This document shows, piece by piece, positions 5,465-32,310 of a stretch of DNA of 64,000 nt. Positions within the stretch are counted from its first letter, which is position 1. Each line of letters opens with the position of its first letter. The translations under genes were made by a program, and so were the position numbers. A model generated the notes under the pieces. The model was not told where the DNA came from and ran no database searches. It worked only from the letters and a program-made list of their open reading frames with translations. The DNA lies in contig JAKVCA010000019.1 of assembly GCA_022448315.1 (NCBI GenBank), positions 1 through 64,000 of the forward strand. Reading direction: 5' to 3'. This DNA is from Pirellulaceae bacterium (GTDB taxonomy: Bacteria > Planctomycetota > Planctomycetia > Pirellulales > Pirellulaceae).

Positions 5465-6202
5465 TCACCTCTTCCCGGTCCAAGCCTCATGGCCAAATTT
5501 AAGGCGGCGAATCTCTGTCGCCTCTTCAAGCTCGGTCTGAACCAGTGGCTTCGAGTTCCATGCATTCTTAATCGACGCTTGAATCCCATTACAAAGTTCA
5601 AAGATCAACGTCTCAGTCTCAATCGCACTTCGGGATAAATCCTGAATTCCGCGCAAACTGGGGGCAAAAATGGATTTTTGTAGAAGAAGGCTACCATGTT
5701 GCAGCAGGGCACTGGCGTGCCGACGTTGTGCACTGCCCAAAACCTTGTGCCCCTGAATCAGAACATCGCCATCTGCCCGTCGCTCGAAACAAAGAAATGG
5801 GTCGTCCTGACGTGCCTGAGTCCCTTCCGCCAATTCTGCCTCAATGCCGAGTTTCGCCAAGGTCGCGATGACCCCACGATGCACCGCGAAATAATAATCA
5901 CGGTGCTGGTTTTTCAAGCGGTCCGTAATGGGAATGATGAGGCTGTAGGTCAATTCTTGATGGTGAACGATCGCTCCCCCGCCAGTGGCCCGGCGCACCA
6001 AAGGCAGGGTCAAACTGGGTGCGTGATCCTCCCGAGCGTTGAGCGACTGAAAATAACCGAGCGAGACGGTAGGACGGTCCCAAAAATAAAATCTCAAAGT
6101 AGGTGACGCCGACATTGAGGATCGCCTCAGCAGCATCTCGTCAATCGCCATATTGTCCGCGCCCTGGCGGGGGACATCTTCGATTAATCGCCCGGATTCC
6201 AT
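5465..6202 (-). CDS. Lipoyl attachment enzyme (LipM-type octanoyltransferase or lipoate ligase)
   Basis: A 245-residue biotin/lipoate A/B ligase family protein (PF03099). Landmarks are RRATGGGAIVHHQELTYSL near residues 70-90, the acyl-binding loop, and GHKVLGSAQRR near 152-162, the conserved lysine segment. A cysteine in PFLCFERRADGDVLIQGHK lies where Bacillus LipM has its catalytic cysteine, so octanoyl transfer from acyl carrier protein may fit better than ATP-dependent lipoate ligation. Its start overlaps the 3' end of gcvPB by 19 bp, so it is the last gene of the glycine cleavage operon and most likely modifies the GcvH lysine encoded upstream. Ligase versus transferase cannot be settled from sequence alone. 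Confidence 0.85.
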   Translation of the reverse strand: MESGRLIEDVPRQGADNMAIDEMLLRRSSMSASPTLRFYFWDRPTVSLGYFQSLNAREDHAPSLTLPLVRRATGGGAIVHHQELTYSLIIPITDRLKNQHRDYYFAVHRGVIATLAKLGIEAELAEGTQARQDDPFLCFERRADGDVLIQGHKVLGSAQRRHASALLQHGSLLLQKSIFAPSLRGIQDLSRSAIETETLIFELCNGIQASIKNAWNSKPLVQTELEEATEIRRLKFGHEAWTGKR

Positions 6203-7644
6203 GTCACCACCGGCTTTCTGGCTGCTGTCACTTCGTCAGGCCTGGAGATCAGTGTCGTTGTCGGCGCTGAATGGAGAGTCTCCGAACTTTCTTCAGTAAT
6301 TCGGAATAAAGCCTCGCAAAATGCATCTAACGTTTCTTTACTTTCGGTCTCGGTGGGCTCCATCATCATGGACTCAGGAACCACGAGAGGAAAATAGACC
6401 GTGGGTGCATGAAACCCATAATCCAGAAGACGCTTCGCCAGATCCATCGCCGTGATCCCTTTGTTCTTTTTCAGGGTCTCTGCTGACGCTACAAACTCAT
6501 GCATGCAACGGTTGCCGTGCGGTACGGGCAAGATGTGTCGGATTCGACTCAGCATGTAGTTAGCATTCAACACCGCGTGCTCGCTAACCTTTTTCAACCC
6601 GTCGGGTCCGTGAGAGAGGATGTAACAATACGCGCGAACGAGAACCCCGACGTTGCCGAAAAAGCTACGAACCCTCCCGATGGACAACGGTCGGTCGTCG
6701 TCGAGATAATATTCATTATCCCGTAGACCCACCACAGGTTTGGGAAGAAAGGGACCAAGATCCTCATTAACGCATATCGGACCCGCCCCGGGACCACCTC
6801 CTCCATGAGGTCCGCTGAAAGTCTTGTGCGGATTGAAGTGCATCATATCTGCACCGAAGTCTCCCGGCCGTGTCACGCCGAGGATGGCGTTCATGTTCGC
6901 GCCATCGAGATAGACAAGCCCGCCGACGTCATGCACAAGTTCTGCGATCTCTTTCACCTGGCCATCAAAAAGACCGAGAGTATTGGGATTCGTGATCATC
7001 AATACTGCGACGTCTTCATCCAGTTTGCTCCGCAAATCATCCATATCGACGCAGCCATCGGCGCCGCTTTTAAGCGTGACGGCGGTCAAACCAGCCATCG
7101 TCGCACTTGCCGGATTGGTTCCGTGCGCACTATCGGGTGTCAACACTTTCGTGCGGGCTTCACCCCGGTGCTGGAAATAGGCAACGGCCGTCATCAACGC
7201 CGTCAACTCACCATGTGCCCCCGCCGCGGGCTGGAGGGACACGCAGGGCAAGCCGGAAATTTCTCCCAACATTTCCTGCATGGCATAGAGAAGTTCGAGC
7301 ATTCCCTGCAATGACGATTCCGTTTGGTAGGGATGCACATGAGCCATACCGGGAAGGCCTGCGAGTCGCTCATTACGCTTCGGGTTGTACTTCATCGTAC
7401 ATGAGCCAAGCGGGTAAAAGTGAGTGTCAACCGACATGTTCAATGTCGACAGGTTGGTGTAATGCCGAACCACATCAGGCTCACTCAATTCAGGAAGCGC
7501 GAGTGGCTTTGTGGCAACGGCAGTCTCGGGCAAGAGGTCACGGATCTCTCGATCCTGCAACACTTCACAATCGGGCATCCGACAGGCTCTTCGTCCCGAC
7601 TTCGACAATTCGCTCAGTAGTTGGGTGGCTATTCGATTTCGCAT
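6184..7644 (-). CDS. gcvPB: Glycine dehydrogenase (decarboxylating) subunit 2
   Basis: A 486-residue beta subunit of the two-subunit P protein of the glycine cleavage system. It decarboxylates glycine and passes the aminomethyl group to lipoyl-GcvH. The pyridoxal-phosphate lysine is in HFNPHKTFSGPHGGGGPGAG. Other family landmarks are HFYPLGSCTMKYNPK near residue 80 and LQPAAGAHGE near 160. Length is normal for GcvPB. It lies 55 bp after gcvPA and overlaps the lipoyl-attachment gene at its 3' end. Confidence 0.97.
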   Translation of the reverse strand: MRNRIATQLLSELSKSGRRACRMPDCEVLQDREIRDLLPETAVATKPLALPELSEPDVVRHYTNLSTLNMSVDTHFYPLGSCTMKYNPKRNERLAGLPGMAHVHPYQTESSLQGMLELLYAMQEMLGEISGLPCVSLQPAAGAHGELTALMTAVAYFQHRGEARTKVLTPDSAHGTNPASATMAGLTAVTLKSGADGCVDMDDLRSKLDEDVAVLMITNPNTLGLFDGQVKEIAELVHDVGGLVYLDGANMNAILGVTRPGDFGADMMHFNPHKTFSGPHGGGGPGAGPICVNEDLGPFLPKPVVGLRDNEYYLDDDRPLSIGRVRSFFGNVGVLVRAYCYILSHGPDGLKKVSEHAVLNANYMLSRIRHILPVPHGNRCMHEFVASAETLKKNKGITAMDLAKRLLDYGFHAPTVYFPLVVPESMMMEPTETESKETLDAFCEALFRITEESSETLHSAPTTTLISRPDEVTAARKPVVTWNPGD

Positions 7645-7699
7645 TTGGGTTTAAACCTTCAGCTGACTCGGGTCGTTTTCAAAGATGAGCAAAACAGGA

Positions 7700-9106
7700 T
7701 TACAGGGATTGGCTCGCGGACTGCAGATGCGGCCGATCCAGTCGACGATTCGTCTCATTGGGCTCGCCATCGAACGCAAGCGCCTCCACCAGTCGATCAA
7801 TCTCTTGGCCGGAACGTTTCTCGGTTACCGCAATCAGGAGACAATCTTCGAGGTGTGGATACCACTGCCCCAAAGGCACTCCAGCAAGGACGCCACAAGC
7901 TTCGGCTGTCTGCAGGCATGCCGAAATATCACCGCGCGGATCACGAACCACAAACTCCTTGAAAAATGGACTCGCCGAACGCCGCATCCAACCCTTGGAT
8001 TCGAGCTGTTCGCATGCGTAATGAGATTTCTTCAAGCAGTGAGTTGCCACCTCCTTGATCCCCTCAGGTCCCACCAGTGATAAATAAATGCTCGCTCTCA
8101 GAGCGAAAAGCCCCTGATTGGAGCAAATATTGCTGGTCGCCTTATCTCGTCGTATGTGCTGTTCCCGGGTCTGCAATGTCAGAACCCAGCATCGGCGGTC
8201 AGAGTCCGTGACGGTTTGCCCCGCGATTCGTCCGGGCATCCGTCGCATGAATGACTCACGACATGCGAGAATCCCCAGATAGGGACCACCGTAAAGTAGT
8301 GGATTCCCAAGAGACTGCCCTTCCGCAACGGCCACATCGACCCCGAGATCACCCGGCCGCTTCAAAACGCCTAAGCTTATGGGGTCAAAAATTTGTACAA
8401 CCTGAACATCGAAGGACTTGGCCGTAGCGACCAAAGATTCCATATCCTCGAGACAGCCGAAAAAGTTAGGGTGCTGCAGGACAAGACACGCCGTCTGTTC
8501 ATCCAACGCCGCCTCGATCGCGGCGGGGCTGACGACCTCATCCTCTGAGTCCACCACGACCAGATCGCAATCCAACTCCCTCAGATACGTCTCCATCACC
8601 TCGCGATACTCGGGATGCACGGTCCCTGCCACGACAACACGGTGGGATCGGCGGGTTGCAGCACGGCACATCAAAACCGCTTCGATCGCCGCAGAGGCTC
8701 CGTCATAAAGGCTTGCATTGGAGACATCCATGCCCGTCAAGCCGCAAATGAGCGATTGGTACTCGAACATGGCCTGAAGATTACCCTGACTCACCTCAGG
8801 TTGATACGGTGTGTAACTCGTGTAAAACTCGCCCCGAGCGGCCAGATTATCGACCACTGCGGGAACAAAATGGTCGTAGGCTCCCCCTCCGAGGAAACAG
8901 AGGTGCGACTCAGTCGACTTATTTTTGGCTGACAATTCTCCCATGTGCCGTGTCAGTTCGATTTCCGACATTGCCGACGGCAAATCCAGCGAACGGCCTA
9001 GCCGTAATTCTTCGGGAATGACGTCGAATAGCTCCTCAATGCTCTCAGCACCGATCGCCTTCAGCATCTCCGCAATGTCGGATTCCGTATTGAAAAAATA
9101 ACTCAC
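7700..9106 (-). CDS. gcvPA: Glycine dehydrogenase (decarboxylating) subunit 1
   Basis: About 468 residues. Alpha subunit of the split P protein, which pairs with GcvPB. Recognisable family sequence runs from the start (YFFNTESDIAEMLKAIG) through FLGGGAYDHFVPAVVD and TPYQPEVSQG, segments shared by all GcvPA proteins. I prefer the GTG at 9106, which places YFFNTES next to the initiator as in relatives; the frame also allows TTG at 9121. A spacer of about 247 bp separates it from gcvH, wider than the other gaps in this operon. Confidence 0.95.
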   Translation of the reverse strand: MSYFFNTESDIAEMLKAIGAESIEELFDVIPEELRLGRSLDLPSAMSEIELTRHMGELSAKNKSTESHLCFLGGGAYDHFVPAVVDNLAARGEFYTSYTPYQPEVSQGNLQAMFEYQSLICGLTGMDVSNASLYDGASAAIEAVLMCRAATRRSHRVVVAGTVHPEYREVMETYLRELDCDLVVVDSEDEVVSPAAIEAALDEQTACLVLQHPNFFGCLEDMESLVATAKSFDVQVVQIFDPISLGVLKRPGDLGVDVAVAEGQSLGNPLLYGGPYLGILACRESFMRRMPGRIAGQTVTDSDRRCWVLTLQTREQHIRRDKATSNICSNQGLFALRASIYLSLVGPEGIKEVATHCLKKSHYACEQLESKGWMRRSASPFFKEFVVRDPRGDISACLQTAEACGVLAGVPLGQWYPHLEDCLLIAVTEKRSGQEIDRLVEALAFDGEPNETNRRLDRPHLQSASQSL

Positions 9107-9353
9107 GTGGATGACCTGCAATGTAAATGGACGGACAACTCATACCGAGTCGTAAGACTCACCACACCAAGTTGGAAATCCGCCTACCAGGGGCGATCTC
9201 AACTCGACTAACATTTGCACCAAATTAGAAAAGAAAACGGATTGTTACCCTCGTGGCAACGGAGACTGACCCGAAACGAGTGCGTCCGCCAGCTTAGTTC
9301 ACCGACATCTCATATTATCTTCGTCTGAGACCCATTATGGAAACACAACTTTT

Positions 9354-9749
9354 CTATGACTCGTCAGCACACTGTTTCTCGTAAGCGGCATGATCCAACA
9401 GCTTCGACAGCGAAGCTTCGTCGCTCAGCCGAACTTTAATCATCCATCCACCGTCGTAGGCGTCATCATTCAGAGTCTCGAGAGCATCTTTTAAAGACTC
9501 GTTGACCTCAACCACTTCACCGTCGACGGGACTATAAAGCGGACTAACCGCTTTCACGGACTCGACTTCACCGAACTCCTTGCCGGACTGCGTCTCAGTT
9601 CCGACCGAAGGCAACTCGATGTAGACGAGGTCGGTCAATTGCTCCACTGCGAATTTGGAGATTCCGACCGTTGCAATTTTGGCCGCGTCCTGATCTTCGA
9701 CCAAGACCCATTCGTGTGTGTCTGCATACAAAAGTTCTTCAAGCTTCAC
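9354..9749 (-). CDS. gcvH: Glycine cleavage system H protein
   Basis: A 131-residue lipoyl carrier that shuttles the aminomethyl intermediate between the P, T and L proteins. The lipoylated lysine is in FGEVESVKAVSPLYSP, near residue 65. The N-terminal YADTHEWVLVED and the C-terminal GGWMIKVRLSD are typical. The start is GTG at 9749, supported by GGAG at 9759-9762 (minus sense) with a 9-nt spacer. It lies 36 bp after gcvT. The substrate-modifying enzyme is the last gene of the same cluster. Confidence 0.96.
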   Translation of the reverse strand: MKLEELLYADTHEWVLVEDQDAAKIATVGISKFAVEQLTDLVYIELPSVGTETQSGKEFGEVESVKAVSPLYSPVDGEVVEVNESLKDALETLNDDAYDGGWMIKVRLSDEASLSKLLDHAAYEKQCADES

Positions 9750-9785
9750 GATTTATTTCTCCACATCCTGGAAATGTCCTTGAAA

Positions 9786-10901
9786 TCATGCTCGTTGATA
9801 AAAAGGTAAATGACAAACTTCAGCCGAATGCCGCTTTCCGCGAATGTCAACTTCGAGTGTTGTCCCCGGTTTCGCTGCAGATTCGTTGAGGTAAGCCATG
9901 GCAATCGGTGTGGAAAGGGTAGGCGAGAAGGTTCCGCTGGTAATTTCCCCCACACGAGTAGCCTGGTGGTAAATCTCACACCCTTCTCGTGCTGGTCGTT
10001 TTCCTTCCAACCGCAAGCCCACGCGAACAGGTAAACCACCTTTTTCGCGAGCCTCCAGAATGGACGATTTTCCGACAAATTCACGGCCCGAACATTGAAT
10101 GGCAAAGTCGAGTCCGGTCTGCGCCACATGGATCGACTCGGAGAGTTCATGGCCATAAAGCGGCATCGCCGCCTCCAAGCGAAGAGTATCCCGGGCTCCC
10201 AATCCCGCGGGCCGAATACCTTGTTCCGCCCCCAAACTCATGAGCGTTTCCCAGACCTCCGAGGCTTGATCGGCACCGACAATAAGTTCCACGCCATCTT
10301 CACCCGTGTACCCGGTTCGGCTTACCGTCAACCCGCCAAAATCACCACTCCGATAGGCACCCGAGTAATAAGGCAGTGAGGAGGCATCCCAATCCAGCCA
10401 TCGACTTACCAGGCGAATGGCTTCGGGACCCTGCACGGCAATCATCGCCGTTTCAAGCGTTCGATCATGGACGGAGCAGGCGTCTGGCTGTTGCCTGAAC
10501 CAATCCACGATCTTCGAACGGTTGCTGGCATTGACAACCATTGAGTAGTGACTTTCGCCATCGGTTGAATTGAGATGGTAGATCAACACATCATCAAGGA
10601 TTGCGCCGTCCGCCCTGCAAACGAGGGAATACCGTATTTTGCCTGGCTGGATTGGCATCACGGCTCGGGTCGAAATTCGATCGAGAAATTGAGCGGCGTT
10701 CGCGCCTGAAAAAGAAAGACGCCCCATGTGAGAAACATCGAAAAGCGATACCTGCTGGCGAGTGGCAAGGTGCTCCGCGACGATCCCCTCGTACTGGATC
10801 GGCATGGACCAACCTGCAAAATCGACCATTCTGGCACTAAGTTCGCAGTGGTTCTGGTGGAGTGGTGTCGTGAGGCTTTCCGAGCCCATAACGATCCCCA
10901 T
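9786..10901 (-). CDS. gcvT: Aminomethyltransferase (glycine cleavage T protein)
   Basis: A 371-residue folate-dependent T protein that releases ammonia from aminomethyl-GcvH and forms methylene-tetrahydrofolate. Family landmarks are HCELSARMVDFAGWSMPIQY at the N-terminus, SLFDVSHMGRLSFSG, VSRTGYTGEDGVELIV (substrate and folate region) and a C-terminal barrel beginning near GLRLEGKRPAREGC. An in-frame ATG at 10889 has GGGGAT just upstream and is the more likely start; the first ATG is at 10901. It is the first gene of the gcv run. The 421 bp upstream show no convincing glycine riboswitch. Confidence 0.96.
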   Translation of the reverse strand: MGIVMGSESLTTPLHQNHCELSARMVDFAGWSMPIQYEGIVAEHLATRQQVSLFDVSHMGRLSFSGANAAQFLDRISTRAVMPIQPGKIRYSLVCRADGAILDDVLIYHLNSTDGESHYSMVVNASNRSKIVDWFRQQPDACSVHDRTLETAMIAVQGPEAIRLVSRWLDWDASSLPYYSGAYRSGDFGGLTVSRTGYTGEDGVELIVGADQASEVWETLMSLGAEQGIRPAGLGARDTLRLEAAMPLYGHELSESIHVAQTGLDFAIQCSGREFVGKSSILEAREKGGLPVRVGLRLEGKRPAREGCEIYHQATRVGEITSGTFSPTLSTPIAMAYLNESAAKPGTTLEVDIRGKRHSAEVCHLPFYQRA

Positions 10902-11322
10902 TAAACTCTGAGGTTTTTTGTCAAATCACCTTCGTCTAGCGGCTAATTAGAAGCCGCCTCAAAACCGCAATCTCGTCGTCAAACCAAAGCCCCCCTCGTT
11001 TCCTGATGTTGAGAGAAAGAGAGAAAGTGGCCCCGCCAGTGTCACGCCGGCCAGAAGCCTCATCTCGATAATGAATCGAAGGTCATGCCTCATACGCTGT
11101 CCTAACGCGAAAGCGCACAATCATCGGTTCCCAAAAACTGAGATTTTCGCAAACGCCAAGATGCCAACGAACGGGAGTCGCCATGTCCGCGCGACTTTCG
11201 AATTGTAGTGGATTCCACAAAAAGGGCCATAAGCCTCGCAGAAAGAACTTCGGACTTTATCTGCAAAAACCTGGCGATAACCCCAGCCTAGCCTGCGATT
11301 GCATGACCCTATATTCGATCTC
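10902..11322. other. Intergenic region between rnr and gcvT
   Basis: No gene is seen. A 6-bp hairpin (GCGGCT, 7-nt loop, AGCCGC, 10939-10957 region) and a purine-rich tract are present. I looked for the glycine riboswitch core and did not find it. Confidence 0.5.
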
Positions 11323-28046: not shown

Positions 28047-29408
28047 TCATGGCAACTCCAACTTCTGAATTGCCCAATCCTGCTCGATGGTGAGGATTGC
28101 CGAGGGGGCTCGGTATTCAAAGACATGGTCGGCCAAATCTCCATCGATCCCGAACAGATAGGAGATCCCAACTTCATCTGACTTCTGCAACGTGGTCTCA
28201 AACGTGAAGTATTCAACGGCGTTGCCATCCGAATCGATGAGAATGGCCGGACTCTCAAAAAGCCACTGCCGATGTGACTCAAGGCTTCCCGTAGATTCGT
28301 CAAAGCGAATTCGCAACTGAATGGACTGCAATTGATTCACTTTACGCGTGCCCATCAACGTCACGACCGTCTTGCCTGTCCTCTGCTCAATCGGCTGCTC
28401 CAGTTTCAAATCCTTAAATTGAAATGAAGTCTCCACCGCGGGAAGTGTCACACGCAAGGATCCTTGCAATTCTTCGACCCATTGGTCAGATCGATCCGCT
28501 TTCTGCAATGTTGCACGAAAATCAACCCACCCCATTCCGCTTTGGACCGGCGTCTCCAATCGCTCCTGCCCCCGATCGGACTTCAAGACATGTTCGAGGT
28601 CCGTCGTTCCCTGCAGACGCGTCAGATCATGAACAATTGAAAGCGGCCTCAGACGCGGTTCCCATCGCATGCGTATCATCACCGCCGTCGTATCCAACAT
28701 CGGATTGGTCAAATCTGAGGTCGACTCGACACGCATGGGTTCGAAAAGAAAAACGCCTCCGGCGTGCAAAGGGGGCGTAGTAGAAAAATCCGGAGGCACG
28801 AGCATCAGCTGCAGTTTTCCAGGTAACGATCGAAAAGGGTGCAATCGAAATTGAGGAAACTTCCGTAGTAGCTCCGAAATCGCATCCCAATAAGTCACGT
28901 CCTCAAGATCGAGAACTTGGGGCTCCGTTTCCGTATTCAGTTTGTCAAACCCGTTCTGTGTCTGTTCCTCGATCGACTGCAACGCTTCCCACAGCGTCAT
29001 CTCTCCGTTCAGTGAAACTCGACTTGGACGTTTCATCTGCTCCGCCAGCTGAACCTCCAGATCACGGCGAATGCGAATCAAGGCCTCGCTCCGCTCAGGA
29101 CTGTCAGTCGATCGATTCGGTGGTAGGTCACGTAACAACCCCGGCCCCAGATCGATCAGCCGTTGGCTCGCTTGACGACGGACGGCCAATGAGTCTGCAT
29201 CCAACTCCGATACCCATTTCAGAATCTGCTCGGACGACACGCTGTCGGCCGTCAAAGCCCGATCTTCTTGCGAGTTGTTTTTCGGTGCCGTTTCAGGCTG
29301 CGCGTGTATCGCTGTGGGGCGATTCAAAACGCTGAAAATCATGACCCATCCCAAGAAGGAGAGGGCTCTGATCCGTCGGTCGATCCGCGAGGGAAAGAGT
29401 ATATGCAT
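28047..29408 (-). CDS. Secreted protein of unknown function
   Basis: A 453-residue protein with a signal peptide (LSFLGWVMIFSVLNRPTAIHA). After the signal comes a helical, HEAT-like segment (LAVRRQASQRLIDLGPGLL), then RVSLNGEMTLWEALQSIEEQ. This recalls the short secretin-like domains seen in planctomycete exported proteins, then long beta-rich regions (residues about 200-450). No catalytic motif is visible. It sits 66 bp upstream of the GspF-like gene on the same strand, so the two may be co-transcribed; a role in assembly or secretion is a guess. Confidence 0.6.
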   Translation of the reverse strand: MHILFPSRIDRRIRALSFLGWVMIFSVLNRPTAIHAQPETAPKNNSQEDRALTADSVSSEQILKWVSELDADSLAVRRQASQRLIDLGPGLLRDLPPNRSTDSPERSEALIRIRRDLEVQLAEQMKRPSRVSLNGEMTLWEALQSIEEQTQNGFDKLNTETEPQVLDLEDVTYWDAISELLRKFPQFRLHPFRSLPGKLQLMLVPPDFSTTPPLHAGGVFLFEPMRVESTSDLTNPMLDTTAVMIRMRWEPRLRPLSIVHDLTRLQGTTDLEHVLKSDRGQERLETPVQSGMGWVDFRATLQKADRSDQWVEELQGSLRVTLPAVETSFQFKDLKLEQPIEQRTGKTVVTLMGTRKVNQLQSIQLRIRFDESTGSLESHRQWLFESPAILIDSDGNAVEYFTFETTLQKSDEVGISYLFGIDGDLADHVFEYRAPSAILTIEQDWAIQKLELP

Positions 29409-29901
29409 TTTTTCCGCCCTTGACTTCGTAAGACGTGTCCGAACTCCTTGGGGCCCCTACAACGACACTCGTTCAGGCGAGATTCAGGTTTGCTGATGAC
29501 TGCGCTAAATTCCAAAGCCTTGCTCGAAATGGCCTCGCAACTCCACCTCCCTCACAAAGCCCACTTCAATCCCTCATCAACCGTTGTGATTCAGGGGCAC
29601 AAAACAACGAGCGACGCCATCCCCGAGTGCGAATCGTAACCGAAGCACCTGCTATAAACCAGTCATTCGCGAAGCCAGTCACCCCATACAAATGTTGACG
29701 AAACACAACAATGACCCAAAACAGTTTGAGGTCGTAAAAATCAACCTTCAATAAAAAATATGATGAATGTTCCCTGAACTTGACTTCAAAGGGCGCGATC
29801 GGCCCTGCTTTCTAAGCTAATTTCTAGAGCAGCGTGTGTCCGCGCCCCTAAGTTCAGCTCCCTTCTACCCGATTGATTGCCCATGATTGACGGTATCGCG
29901 C
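29409..29901. other. Intergenic stretch of about 490 bp
   Basis: Between the divergent secreted-protein gene and the decayed DUF1570 gene. An A/T-rich section (about 29735-29770) may hold a promoter. No gene or repeat is seen. Confidence 0.5.
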
Positions 29902-30942
29902 ATGTCAAAACGCCTCGACATATTGATGAAGAGGATATTGATGGTGATAGTCGCCAGCCTTGCAACCGCTCCTGCGGCTCTGGTTACCGCGCAAGATCAA
30001 GTCAAGGTGCTTTGGAACGACCAAATCCATACGGGCCGAATTCTCTTTTCGTCATCCTCGGATACGATTCTTTTGGCCCGAGACGGCCAAATCCACCATC
30101 TGCCTGGGACTTCAAAGACGGAGGCAGCGGCCGTCAAGGTTCATCTCGAGCCTGAGTCTCTTGCGGATATGAGCCAACAGCTGAGGCGAGATTTTGGCCC
30201 CAACCAGAGATCTCGTTTACCGGGCATTACACAATCGTCCATCCGCGTAGACAAGCTGAGTTATGGAAAACAAAGTTCGAAGATTTCTACGGCTGTTTTC
30301 ACCAATATTTCAGTCAACGAAATATTGAACTCCGTGAGCCGTAATTCAAGTTGGTCGCAATTGTCTTTAACCACTGGGGCGAATTCGTCAACTGCGCACG
30401 GCGAATGGGTGATCGCCTTACCTCGAGAATGATCAGTTATTACTCTCCGAAAACCAATCGTAATGCGATCCTCGGCTCTGGAGAGGCAACCTCCTCCTTA
30501 ACGACCCAGGAGGTGGGCAATCCCACCATCCTTCATGAGGTGACGCATCAGGCCGCATTCAACCGTGGAACCACCGCCGCTGCTGCCCATCGCCGCGATG
30601 GATCAGCGAAGGACTGTCAACCCTTCTGGAATCACAGGATAAGCGGTCCACATGTTCCCGATCCTACAAAGATCGGATCAACCCGCGGATGCTTGAAGCG
30701 TTAGCGAAAAAATGATAATGGAGCAATCGCAATTCGATCTGGAAGGCTTGGTTTCCAACGACGATCTGTTTCAAGACGATCCGGTCCTCGCCTACGCATC
30801 TGCTTGGCTCATTTCATTTTATCTTTCCGAGAAATTTCCCACCAAGTATGAACAACTCTTGCGAACCAAGTTTCGAAAAATTCCCTTTCGGCGAATCACC
30901 TGTCAGGAGCGACGAGATGACTGGGAGGCAATCTTTAGGTAG
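29902..30942 (+). pseudogene. Decayed DUF1570 (HExxH metallopeptidase-like) gene
   Basis: The reading shifts frame three times and crosses one stop, but all pieces fit one DUF1570-type protein of about 347 residues. Frame 1 gives a signal peptide (LMVIVASLATAPAALVTAQ) and continues to RRDFGP near 30200. Frame 3 then reads PEISFTGHYTIVHPRRQAEL and continues to VAIVFNHWGEF, SYYSPKTNRN and ILHEVTHQAAFN, whose HEVTH is a zinc-binding motif. Frame 2 gives PSPRWISEGLSTLLESQDKR to LEALAKK. Frame 1 resumes with FDLEGLVSNDDLFQ and AYASAWLISFYLSEK. A TAA interrupts frame 3 at 30342-30344. Each shift is explained by one missing base in a homopolymer: C near 30200, C near 30587, A near 30706. The 3' end overlaps the convergent membrane-protein gene. 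Members of this family are secreted proteins of unknown role. Confidence 0.85.
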
Positions 30943-31852
30943 CCACCCCATCTTTTTGAAGAACGGATTCTGGACTTTTATGATCACTTGAAGTCACCCG
31001 TTTCATCGCTCGCCCGGAAATCCAAGGCTCAAAGGGTAGAAGGAAAAGTGCGACAAGAATCGCATTGAAGTGGAATCCGTAATCAACAAAGGTTCCCAGC
31101 ACTCCTGTGTAGAAGCCCAGCAACCCGAGGCCTACCAGGGTTCGAGGCCATCTGCCAAACCAGCAGAGGAACGAGAACGTTTCGATCACCAAAGCTCCAG
31201 TTTGCAACAGTTGGGCAATCAGTCGATTTGCCAGAGCAAGTTGGGCAAACGGGCTCGCTTGCCAGCCCCAAAGATAAATCCACAACTGAAGAGAGAGTCC
31301 ATTTCCCCAATCCAATCCACTGGTTGAAATTTTGGTGACGCCCGCCCACGCATGAAAAATTCCGAGGTAAAAAACGGCGAGGTAAAACACCCACCGGGGA
31401 TAAAGTTTGAGCTGCCAGAAGGTACCGGCTTGGCACGCAGCGACAATTTCAACCCGGTAAAGATGAAACCAGGCCGCATGGAGAAAAATGAGCATGTTGG
31501 CGACGTGAAAAATATGGGCACCGTTCGCCACGTTTTCCATCCTCAAGGCCCAAATCAACATAAAGCACACCGACGTTGTCGCAGGCGTCCAGGCCAAACC
31601 TCGCTTCAGAGCCCAACCAATGGCAGCCACCACGAGCAGAACTCGTAGTGCTTGATAAACGTAGAGCGAGCTCAGGATTTGCTCGGGGAAGAACGAAATG
31701 AGCGTCGCCGAATCGGCTCGCAAGCCAGTTTGATGGGATGGCCCTAGAATCGCCAGGCAAATTGCAAAGGATATCAGGATCCAGACCGTCATCTGCCCGA
31801 AATCCGGATAGGTGCAATCGAACCAACCTTTGCATAAGCGTTTCATTCTCAT
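30935..31852 (-). CDS. HTTM-like multi-pass membrane protein
   Basis: About 305 residues from the ATG at 31852, with about eight hydrophobic helices, for example TVWILISFAICLAILGP and ILVALFLLPFEPWI. The layout and segments such as HLYRVEIVAACQAGTFWQLK and LQTGALVIETFSFLCWF fit the HTTM family (vitamin-K-dependent carboxylase-like membrane domain), whose bacterial role is mostly unknown. Its ATG overlaps the stop of the upstream 152-residue gene in a TGATG arrangement, so the two are translationally coupled. Family assignment is moderate. Confidence 0.7.
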   Translation of the reverse strand: MRMKRLCKGWFDCTYPDFGQMTVWILISFAICLAILGPSHQTGLRADSATLISFFPEQILSSLYVYQALRVLLVVAAIGWALKRGLAWTPATTSVCFMLIWALRMENVANGAHIFHVANMLIFLHAAWFHLYRVEIVAACQAGTFWQLKLYPRWVFYLAVFYLGIFHAWAGVTKISTSGLDWGNGLSLQLWIYLWGWQASPFAQLALANRLIAQLLQTGALVIETFSFLCWFGRWPRTLVGLGLLGFYTGVLGTFVDYGFHFNAILVALFLLPFEPWISGRAMKRVTSSDHKSPESVLQKDGVAT

Positions 31853-32310
31853 CAAGGTCGCTCGACTTTGAGTGCGAGCCTCTCTACCGGACCGACACGG
31901 TTTTCATCCAGTGCACCGACTACGGTCATTTCGATCCTCAGATACGGCGTATCTGGCCAGACGTCGATTTGCTCCAACAAGTGGCGACTCAACTCCTGCT
32001 CCGTCGGTACCTGACCGAAACGATCCAAGGTTTCAGCAGGCTGAATCCCGACCCCCAACCCCACCGGGTTGCCGTCGTAAACTCGTTGCAGTTTCAAACT
32101 GGCCAGATCAATCTCGCGACCGTTAGCGTCTGTGACGAAGTATTCGCAGTAACAAGCTGGCTCATCGCAAAACATGGGTGAAATGGTGAATGGAAAACGC
32201 TCACCCAAGACGATCGGACCGATCAGGTTGATCACAATAAACCCAACGATAAAAACGGTTTCCTGTCGTCGCATTCGCGAGTTCATTGGAGACGTGCCTG
32301 CGTCCGGCAT
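31852..32310 (-). CDS. Small membrane-anchored partner of the HTTM-like protein
   Basis: A 152-residue protein with one N-terminal helix (TVFIVGFIVINLIGPIVLG) followed by PFTISPMFCDEPACYCEYFV, a Cys-containing segment, and a beta-rich C-terminal domain. I do not know a named family. It starts 22 bp after glgC and ends coupled to the HTTM-like gene, so the two probably form one membrane complex. The CDEPACYC cysteines could form a disulfide outside the membrane. Confidence 0.65.
   Translation of the reverse strand: MPDAGTSPMNSRMRRQETVFIVGFIVINLIGPIVLGERFPFTISPMFCDEPACYCEYFVTDANGREIDLASLKLQRVYDGNPVGLGVGIQPAETLDRFGQVPTEQELSRHLLEQIDVWPDTPYLRIEMTVVGALDENRVGPVERLALKVERP

What the first reader, a model, noticed from the sequence alone, without database searches (positions are those of the whole stretch)
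29902..30942. DUF1570-type gene broken by three one-base homopolymer deletions and one stop
Restoring one C near 30200, one C near 30587 and one A near 30706 gives a single frame from signal peptide to C-terminus, including the HEVTH zinc motif and RWISEGLS. A TAA at 30342-30344 also interrupts it (a single change from GAA). All three indels are losses in runs of C or A. Either this is a decayed gene, or a locally poor assembly; the other genes of the window have intact frames, which favours decay.
Basis: seen in the sequence. Interest (0 to 1): 0.6.

Follow-up and report, generated by a model that had tools for sequence, protein, structure and literature searches.

The report
A decaying zinc-peptidase gene
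In this planctomycete bacterium a gene for a probable zinc-dependent protein-cutting enzyme has been broken by several separate mutations and seems to be decaying, while a related lineage keeps an unbroken copy at the same place; this is an ordinary pseudogene.

Summary
Three details change. The second frame change lies at 30567-30571, not in the C run near 30587 (profile score 54.7 against at most 39.8), so the losses are not all in C or A runs. The TAG at 30940-30942 is a premature stop or frame scar, not the end: homology continues to 30993. That makes at least five lesions. Decay is better supported than poor assembly: neighbouring genes are in frame, a sister lineage (G017) has an unbroken copy at the same locus, and this gene has evolved faster than its sister copies (mean path to 21 outgroups 4.68 against 3.17 and 3.54) while the divergent neighbour gene has not (3.56 against 3.65 and 3.66). 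The genome holds only distant paralogs. The intact G017 protein is predicted to have a collagenase (M9)-like zinc-peptidase fold. In 33 of 59 relatives the gene stands head-to-head with the same partner; others seem to have lost it. Catalytic motifs survive, so decay is probably young. No reads were available. An ordinary unitary pseudogene.

The parts
29902..30198 (+). Remnant, first segment: start codon, signal-peptide-like start (by eye) and N-terminal region
   Evidence: (profile positions 10-111)
30199..30206 (+). First frame change: 8 bases where aligned relatives have 9
30207..30569 (+). Remnant, second segment, in another frame; holds HEVTH
   Evidence: (profile positions 106-157 and 159-233)
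30342..30344 (+). In-frame TAA, at a variable column where E is the commonest residue of 19 relatives
30534..30548 (+). HEVTH zinc-binding motif, retained
   Evidence: H, E and H invariant in 35 of 35 orthologs
30567..30571 (+). Second frame change (best 30570-30571), no homopolymer longer than 2
30572..30703 (+). Remnant, third segment, in the third frame; holds RWISEGL
   Evidence: profile positions 234-279
30596..30616 (+). RWISEGL; its E is the likely third zinc ligand (inference from the gluzincin pattern, recalled)
   Evidence: W, E and G invariant in 35 of 35 orthologs
30695..30713 (+). Interval of the third frame change (contains an A6 run; profile path 30704-30708)
30709..30939 (+). 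Remnant, fourth segment, back in the first frame
   Evidence: (profile positions 285-356)
30940..30942 (+).
30943..30993 (+). Homologous C-terminus beyond the TAG; no stop just after it
   Evidence: to 30975
28047..29408 (-). Intact divergent neighbour (453 aa, no Pfam or NCBIfam family over cut-off), head-to-head with a DUF1570 gene in 33 of 52 other genomes that carry it
30935..31855 (-). Open-frame neighbour on the other side (306 aa); its last codons overlap the remnant's 3' end

Best explanation
A unitary pseudogene. The ancestor had at this locus a gene for a DUF1570-type, probably secreted, collagenase-fold (gluzincin) zinc metallopeptidase, divergently placed against a conserved 453-residue partner gene. 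In this lineage it lost selective constraint and took at least three frame-changing indels, one clear nonsense codon, a second stop or indel pair near the 3' end, loss of the native stop, and extra amino-acid changes. Shown: the lesions in the assembled sequence, synteny, absence of another close copy in the held genome, and faster evolution of this gene. Inferred: secretion, loss of enzyme activity, and that loss of use came before most lesions. Translation from the native start would end at the first stop in frame (30430-30432), before the zinc motif.
For: Five colinear fragments in three frames. Same gene order in G017 (GlgC, 152 aa, 306 aa, DUF1570, 453 aa, T2SSF), where DUF1570 is one open frame of 373 aa with no stop; the second genome of that genus, G245, has T2SSF, the partner and DUF1570 together. 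Acceleration: window and G017 copies are sisters (support 99/96) with end branches 1.69 and 0.73; with G245 added, mean path to 21 outgroups is 4.68 (window), 3.17 (G017), 3.54 (G245) for DUF1570, and 3.56, 3.65, 3.66 for the partner. Relative-rate counts at columns where at least half of the outgroups agree: DUF1570 32 window-only against 12 G017-only departures (p 0.0037), partner 21 against 19 (p 0.87); control G245 against G017, DUF1570 13 against 10 (p 0.68). No other close copy in the genome: besides the window pieces the G017 protein finds only C49 (29% identity) and C40 (27-32%); Pfam DUF1570 finds C40, C49 and C1. 20 of 20 other ORFs that I picked for searches match a Pfam family at E 0.001 or better as single open frames (19 of 20 over a curated cut-off), and eight window genes beside the locus align to G017 each as one tblastn stretch, two of them only in part because the G017 sequence held ends there.
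Against: No reads, so assembly errors at one or more lesions are not excluded. 20 of 21 columns invariant in 35 orthologs are kept, and at columns at least 90% conserved the window departs at 5 of 39, inside the range of the intact copies (0-9 of 39-43). Fisher tests of DUF1570 against partner are marginal or null (0.071, 0.038, 1.0 at thresholds 0.5, 0.7, 0.85 with G017; 0.63, 0.30, 1.0 with G245); at threshold 0.95 the counts are too few (4 against 1, partner 2 against 0). The window's partner gene also has the longest of the three end branches (1.10 against 0.77 and 0.79), though far less markedly than DUF1570 (2.24 against 0.43 and 0.80). Against all 22 relatives compared, the window's identity gap to the partner is low but not extreme (0.030; others -0.028 to 0.137).
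Confidence: 0.86

Rival explanations
1. An intact gene with local assembly or consensus errors.
For: Draft genome of 126 contigs; two of the three indel intervals touch a C run or an A6 run; catalytic motifs and 20 of 21 invariant columns retained.
Against: At least five lesions in 1.1 kb while the neighbours are in frame; one shift is not in a homopolymer; scattered base errors would have to be many to lengthen the branch of this gene alone.
Confidence: 0.09
2. A working gene read through by recoding (frameshifting and stop read-through), or split into working peptides.
For: Coding homology is still recognisable in every frame.
Against: Three frame steps plus two stops would be needed; of the 36 ortholog loci, 35 are unbroken (one of these, L069, cut by a contig end) and one, L040, is split once; the two halves of the zinc site lie in different frames; the gene is accelerated.
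Confidence: 0.02
3. A recent breakage of a copy that had already diverged under function; the acceleration is then not neutral decay.
For: Conserved columns mostly kept; the family holds other long branches that are unbroken (L055 2.27, L037 2.01).
Against: Several independent lesions; the two sister copies are not accelerated.
Confidence: 0.15

Closest known systems
DUF1570 (Pfam PF07607), planctomycete orthologs such as G017:C843:2468-3586
   Same: Same locus, same neighbours, same motifs; read-through peptide 60 bits against cut-off 22, G017 99.8 bits
   Different: The window copy is broken in at least five places; G017's is one open frame
Collagenase peptidase domains (M9, family number recalled; e.g. 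4ar1, collagenase H)
   Same: Model of the intact G017 protein, residues 104-370: Z 18.8, 240 residues, 3.5 A; HExxH and downstream W..EGL
   Different: 11% identity; the N-terminal part is outside the match; substrate unknown. Fold likeness shows no function
Unitary bacterial pseudogenes in general
   Same: Indels and nonsense codons, faster evolution, no other close copy found in the genome
   Different: Nothing unusual in kind

Membership tests
DUF1570 (PF07607) | Match to the Pfam model over its curated cut-off | tested here: met
   Read-through peptide with X at each break: 60 bits, cut-off 22; single-frame pieces alone stay below (14.8 and 14.7 bits, two pieces none)
DUF1570 (PF07607) | HExxH plus downstream W..EG | tested here: met
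   HEVTH 30534-30548 and RWISEGL 30596-30616, in different frames
DUF1570 (PF07607) | One open reading frame | tested here: not met
   Three frame changes, TAA and TAG
Unitary pseudogene | Disrupted where relatives have an unbroken ortholog at the same locus | tested here: met
   G017; G245 has the same neighbours on one side, with an ambiguous spot in its own copy
Unitary pseudogene | No other close copy in the genome | tested here: met
   Only paralogs of 27-37% identity on C40 and C49 and a weak one on C1; genome 96.95% complete, so a missed copy is possible
Unitary pseudogene | Relaxed constraint | tested here: met
   Branch and path lengths and relative-rate counts; not visible at the most conserved columns; dN/dS not tested, as no congener is held
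Unitary pseudogene | Lesions confirmed by reads; no functional product | not testable with these tools
   No reads, RNA or proteomics
Gluzincin metallopeptidase with collagenase-like fold (intact ortholog) | Fold and zinc motif | tested here: met
   Model pLDDT 89.5; Z 18.8 to 4ar1; profile match to glutamyl aminopeptidase, E 0.0018
Gluzincin metallopeptidase with collagenase-like fold (intact ortholog) | Peptidase activity | not testable with these tools
   No assay seen; the one paper found that names DUF1570 calls it a family of hypothetical proteins

The most novel reading that the evidence does not exclude
The ortholog encodes a secreted collagenase-fold peptidase that works with its conserved head-to-head partner, a protein of no known family; the peptidase half is lost again and again among planctomycetes while the partner is kept, so the partner has a use of its own. 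This genome shows one such loss midway.
Probability: 0.25. Interest if true: 0.35.

Novelty: new member of a known kind. Interest (0 to 1): 0.15.

Why it matters
Little beyond annotation: 29902-30993 should be marked as a pseudogene with corrected limits. The by-products are slightly more useful: a fold-based guess (collagenase-like zinc peptidase) for an uncharacterised planctomycete family, and a conserved divergent gene pair of unknown role whose peptidase half seems dispensable in several lineages.

Tried and rejected
Strictly conserved columns as a sign of decay: with 18 relatives chosen by similarity the window departed at 9 of 49 invariant columns against 0-5 in the relatives, but with 35 broader orthologs it departs at 5 of 39, inside their range 0-9. 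The first result depended on the choice of rows, and at three of the nine places (residues 245, 246 and 341 of that alignment) the sister G017, which was not among those rows, also departs (by eye); it is not used as proof. L017, cut by a contig end, was dropped before the count. The broken G016 copy (L040) was dropped from the tests.

Neighbour as a clock against all relatives: not decisive; only the tests with sisters were informative.

G078 as a second pseudogene: the two stops counted lie outside its gene (before the first M and at the natural end). G016: frame-split at one place, otherwise well conserved; not followed.

Remnants beside the partner gene in 13 of the 19 genomes that have the partner without a neighbouring DUF1570 (L070-L082): none; best E 0.67. 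The other six were not fetched for this.

A further gene in 29400-29899: no Pfam match in the three forward frames read through; the reverse strand was not scanned. Promoter and terminator scan: no more sites than in shuffles. Congeners: the genus holds only this genome. Genome-collection scan with the second segment: 6 loci, best 43% identity. Partner fold: no Foldseek match counted at E 0.001 or better. dN/dS was not attempted, as the nearest ortholog is only 37% identical. In one search loci on the reverse strand were read in the wrong orientation; one search replaces it. Paper searches on bacterial pseudogenes were seen as listings only and are not used.

Full report
What is there. The window is the first 64,000 bases of contig C38 of a 5.03-Mb, 126-contig genome; the 6 named relatives found are all planctomycete metagenome assemblies by their titles. 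Translating the three forward frames shows a peptide with a signal-like start (by eye) at 29902, which leaves its frame near 30198, continues in a second frame, then a third, and returns to the first. A profile of 35 unbroken orthologs, searched against all stop-to-stop peptides (20 residues or more) of the window, finds five colinear pieces here, each significant on its own (E 5.9e-8 to 1.2e-17), and nothing else in the window better than E 4.6. The G017 ortholog alone finds three colinear pieces. This is not chance.

A frame-aware alignment to 19 relatives puts the first change in the 8 bases 30199-30206, where relatives have 9. It puts the second at 30570-30571; forcing it to 30580-30595 drops the local score from 54.7 to 39.8 or less. 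The better place gives a gap-free fit of FNRG.HRRCCPSPRW to the family's FNTGxHxRxxxxPxW, whose R, P and W are invariant and H nearly so in 35 orthologs. That site has no run longer than two bases, so the statement that all losses lie in C or A runs fails. The third lies within about 30695-30713 and may be in the A6 run. The TAG at 30940-30942 is not the natural end: the family's last 16 columns are matched right after it (3 of 81,808 stop-free 16-residue peptides of the window score as high), and the G017 match runs through it to 30975. No stop stands just after 30993, where relatives end. Whether that TAG is a nonsense codon beside a G change or the scar of two opposite indels cannot be told. 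One residue is missing near 30643.

What it was. With breaks marked X the peptide matches Pfam DUF1570 at 60 bits (cut-off 22); the intact G017 ortholog scores 99.8. AlphaFold2 on G017 with 34 orthologs gives pLDDT 89.5. The best structural neighbours in the VIA-align look are collagenase peptidase domains (4ar1: Z 18.8, 240 residues, 3.5 A, 11% identity), then M30 lugdulysin (12.8) and M1-type aminopeptidases (up to 12.3); Foldseek itself ranks IRAP, LTA4 hydrolase and collagenases together at E about 1e-5. The profile also finds glutamyl aminopeptidase by sequence at E 0.0018. So the intact gene most likely encodes a gluzincin-type zinc peptidase, probably secreted; the substrate is unknown. 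A search of the paper library for DUF1570 gave one paper; [quoted passage not shown]

Locus. In G017 the order GlgC, a 152-aa gene, a 306-aa gene, DUF1570, the 453-aa gene, T2SSF is the same as in the window. In G245, of the same genus as G017, T2SSF, the partner and DUF1570 lie together on a short contig. Of 59 other genomes searched, 52 carry the 453-aa partner and 55 have some DUF1570 hit; in 33 the two are neighbours, and all 33 pairs are head-to-head. Three carry the partner with no DUF1570 hit at the threshold (G002, G005, G012); the more sensitive search finds only weak matches there (1.5e-24, 6.4e-22, 1.1e-25), and no remnant lies beside the partner. In the family-wide search with the G017 ortholog, 236 of 241 genomes (own included) have a match at E 1e-12 or better. 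By my own count of that table, 44 of the 240 other genomes have a best match weaker than 1e-35 and 5 have none. Paralogs give matches of that strength (in the own genome C49, 29% identity, gives 6.6e-31), so these 49 probably lack a close ortholog, though the cut is arbitrary and many of the genomes are incomplete. Repeated loss is likely but was not tested on a tree.

Decay or assembly. For decay: (a) at least five lesions in 1.1 kb, whereas the eight genes beside it align to G017 each as one stretch (two of them only in part, as the G017 sequence held ends there), and 20 of 20 further ORFs that I chose match Pfam families as single frames, 19 over a curated cut-off; (b) faster evolution of this gene. 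The tree of 44 rows pairs the window with G017 (99/96), end branches 1.69 and 0.73. With G245 added, mean path to 21 outgroups is 4.68 for the window against 3.17 and 3.54, while for the partner gene of the same genomes it is 3.56 against 3.65 and 3.66. Relative-rate counts against G017: 32 to 12 (p 0.0037), 17 to 2 (p 0.0007) and 8 to 1 (p 0.039) at consensus thresholds 0.5, 0.7 and 0.85; partner 21 to 19, 13 to 9, 6 to 1. Against G245: 32 to 15 (p 0.019), 16 to 6 (p 0.052), 8 to 5 (p 0.58); partner 18 to 11, 8 to 7, 5 to 2. Control G245 against G017: 13 to 10, 8 to 4, 5 to 1. A few indel errors would not do this. Against, or limiting: tests of gene against partner are marginal or not significant; the window's partner also has the longest end branch of the three (1.10 against 0.77 and 0.79), though DUF1570 differs far more (2.24 against 0.43 and 0.80); at the most conserved columns the window is within the range of intact copies (5 of 39; range 0-9), 20 of 21 invariant residues survive, and no reads exist. 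Together this suggests a fairly young pseudogene that still shows its catalytic motifs.

Mechanism. Translation from 29902 leaves the ancestral frame after about 100 residues and stops at 30430-30432, before the zinc motif. HEVTH and RWISEGL lie in different frames, so no single product read in one frame can form the active site. That the enzyme is absent is an inference from this. Unbroken paralogs on C40 and C49 may or may not cover for it.

Verdict. An ordinary unitary pseudogene of a planctomycete DUF1570 peptidase, with better limits and lesion positions than first given.

Noticed in passing
28047-29408 (-): The divergent neighbour is a conserved 453-aa protein with no Pfam or NCBIfam family over cut-off and no strong Foldseek match in the PDB (best E 1.0e-3, TM 0.17; model pLDDT 84.4: helices, then beta domains). 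It stands head-to-head with a DUF1570 gene in 33 of 52 other genomes that carry it.
   Followed up: partly
L040 (G016:C16), about 6528-6534 on the reverse strand: The DUF1570 ortholog of genome G016 is split by one frame break but otherwise well conserved; single lesion or assembly error.
   Followed up: partly
L097 (G245:C256): The DUF1570 ortholog of G245 reads X and lacks the usual HExxH stretch between TIY and AAFNTG, perhaps an ambiguous, masked or misassembled spot.
   Followed up: no
30935-31855 (-): The 306-aa neighbour's last codons overlap the remnant's 3' end by 59 bases, while in G017 the two genes meet tail-to-tail with hardly any overlap; the neighbour may have run on into the dead gene, but its C-terminus is too variable to tell.
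   Followed up: partly
6184-10961 (-): GCV_T and GCV_H domains in adjacent ORFs of one frame, next to two GcvP subunit genes; looks like an ordinary glycine cleavage cluster.
   Followed up: no
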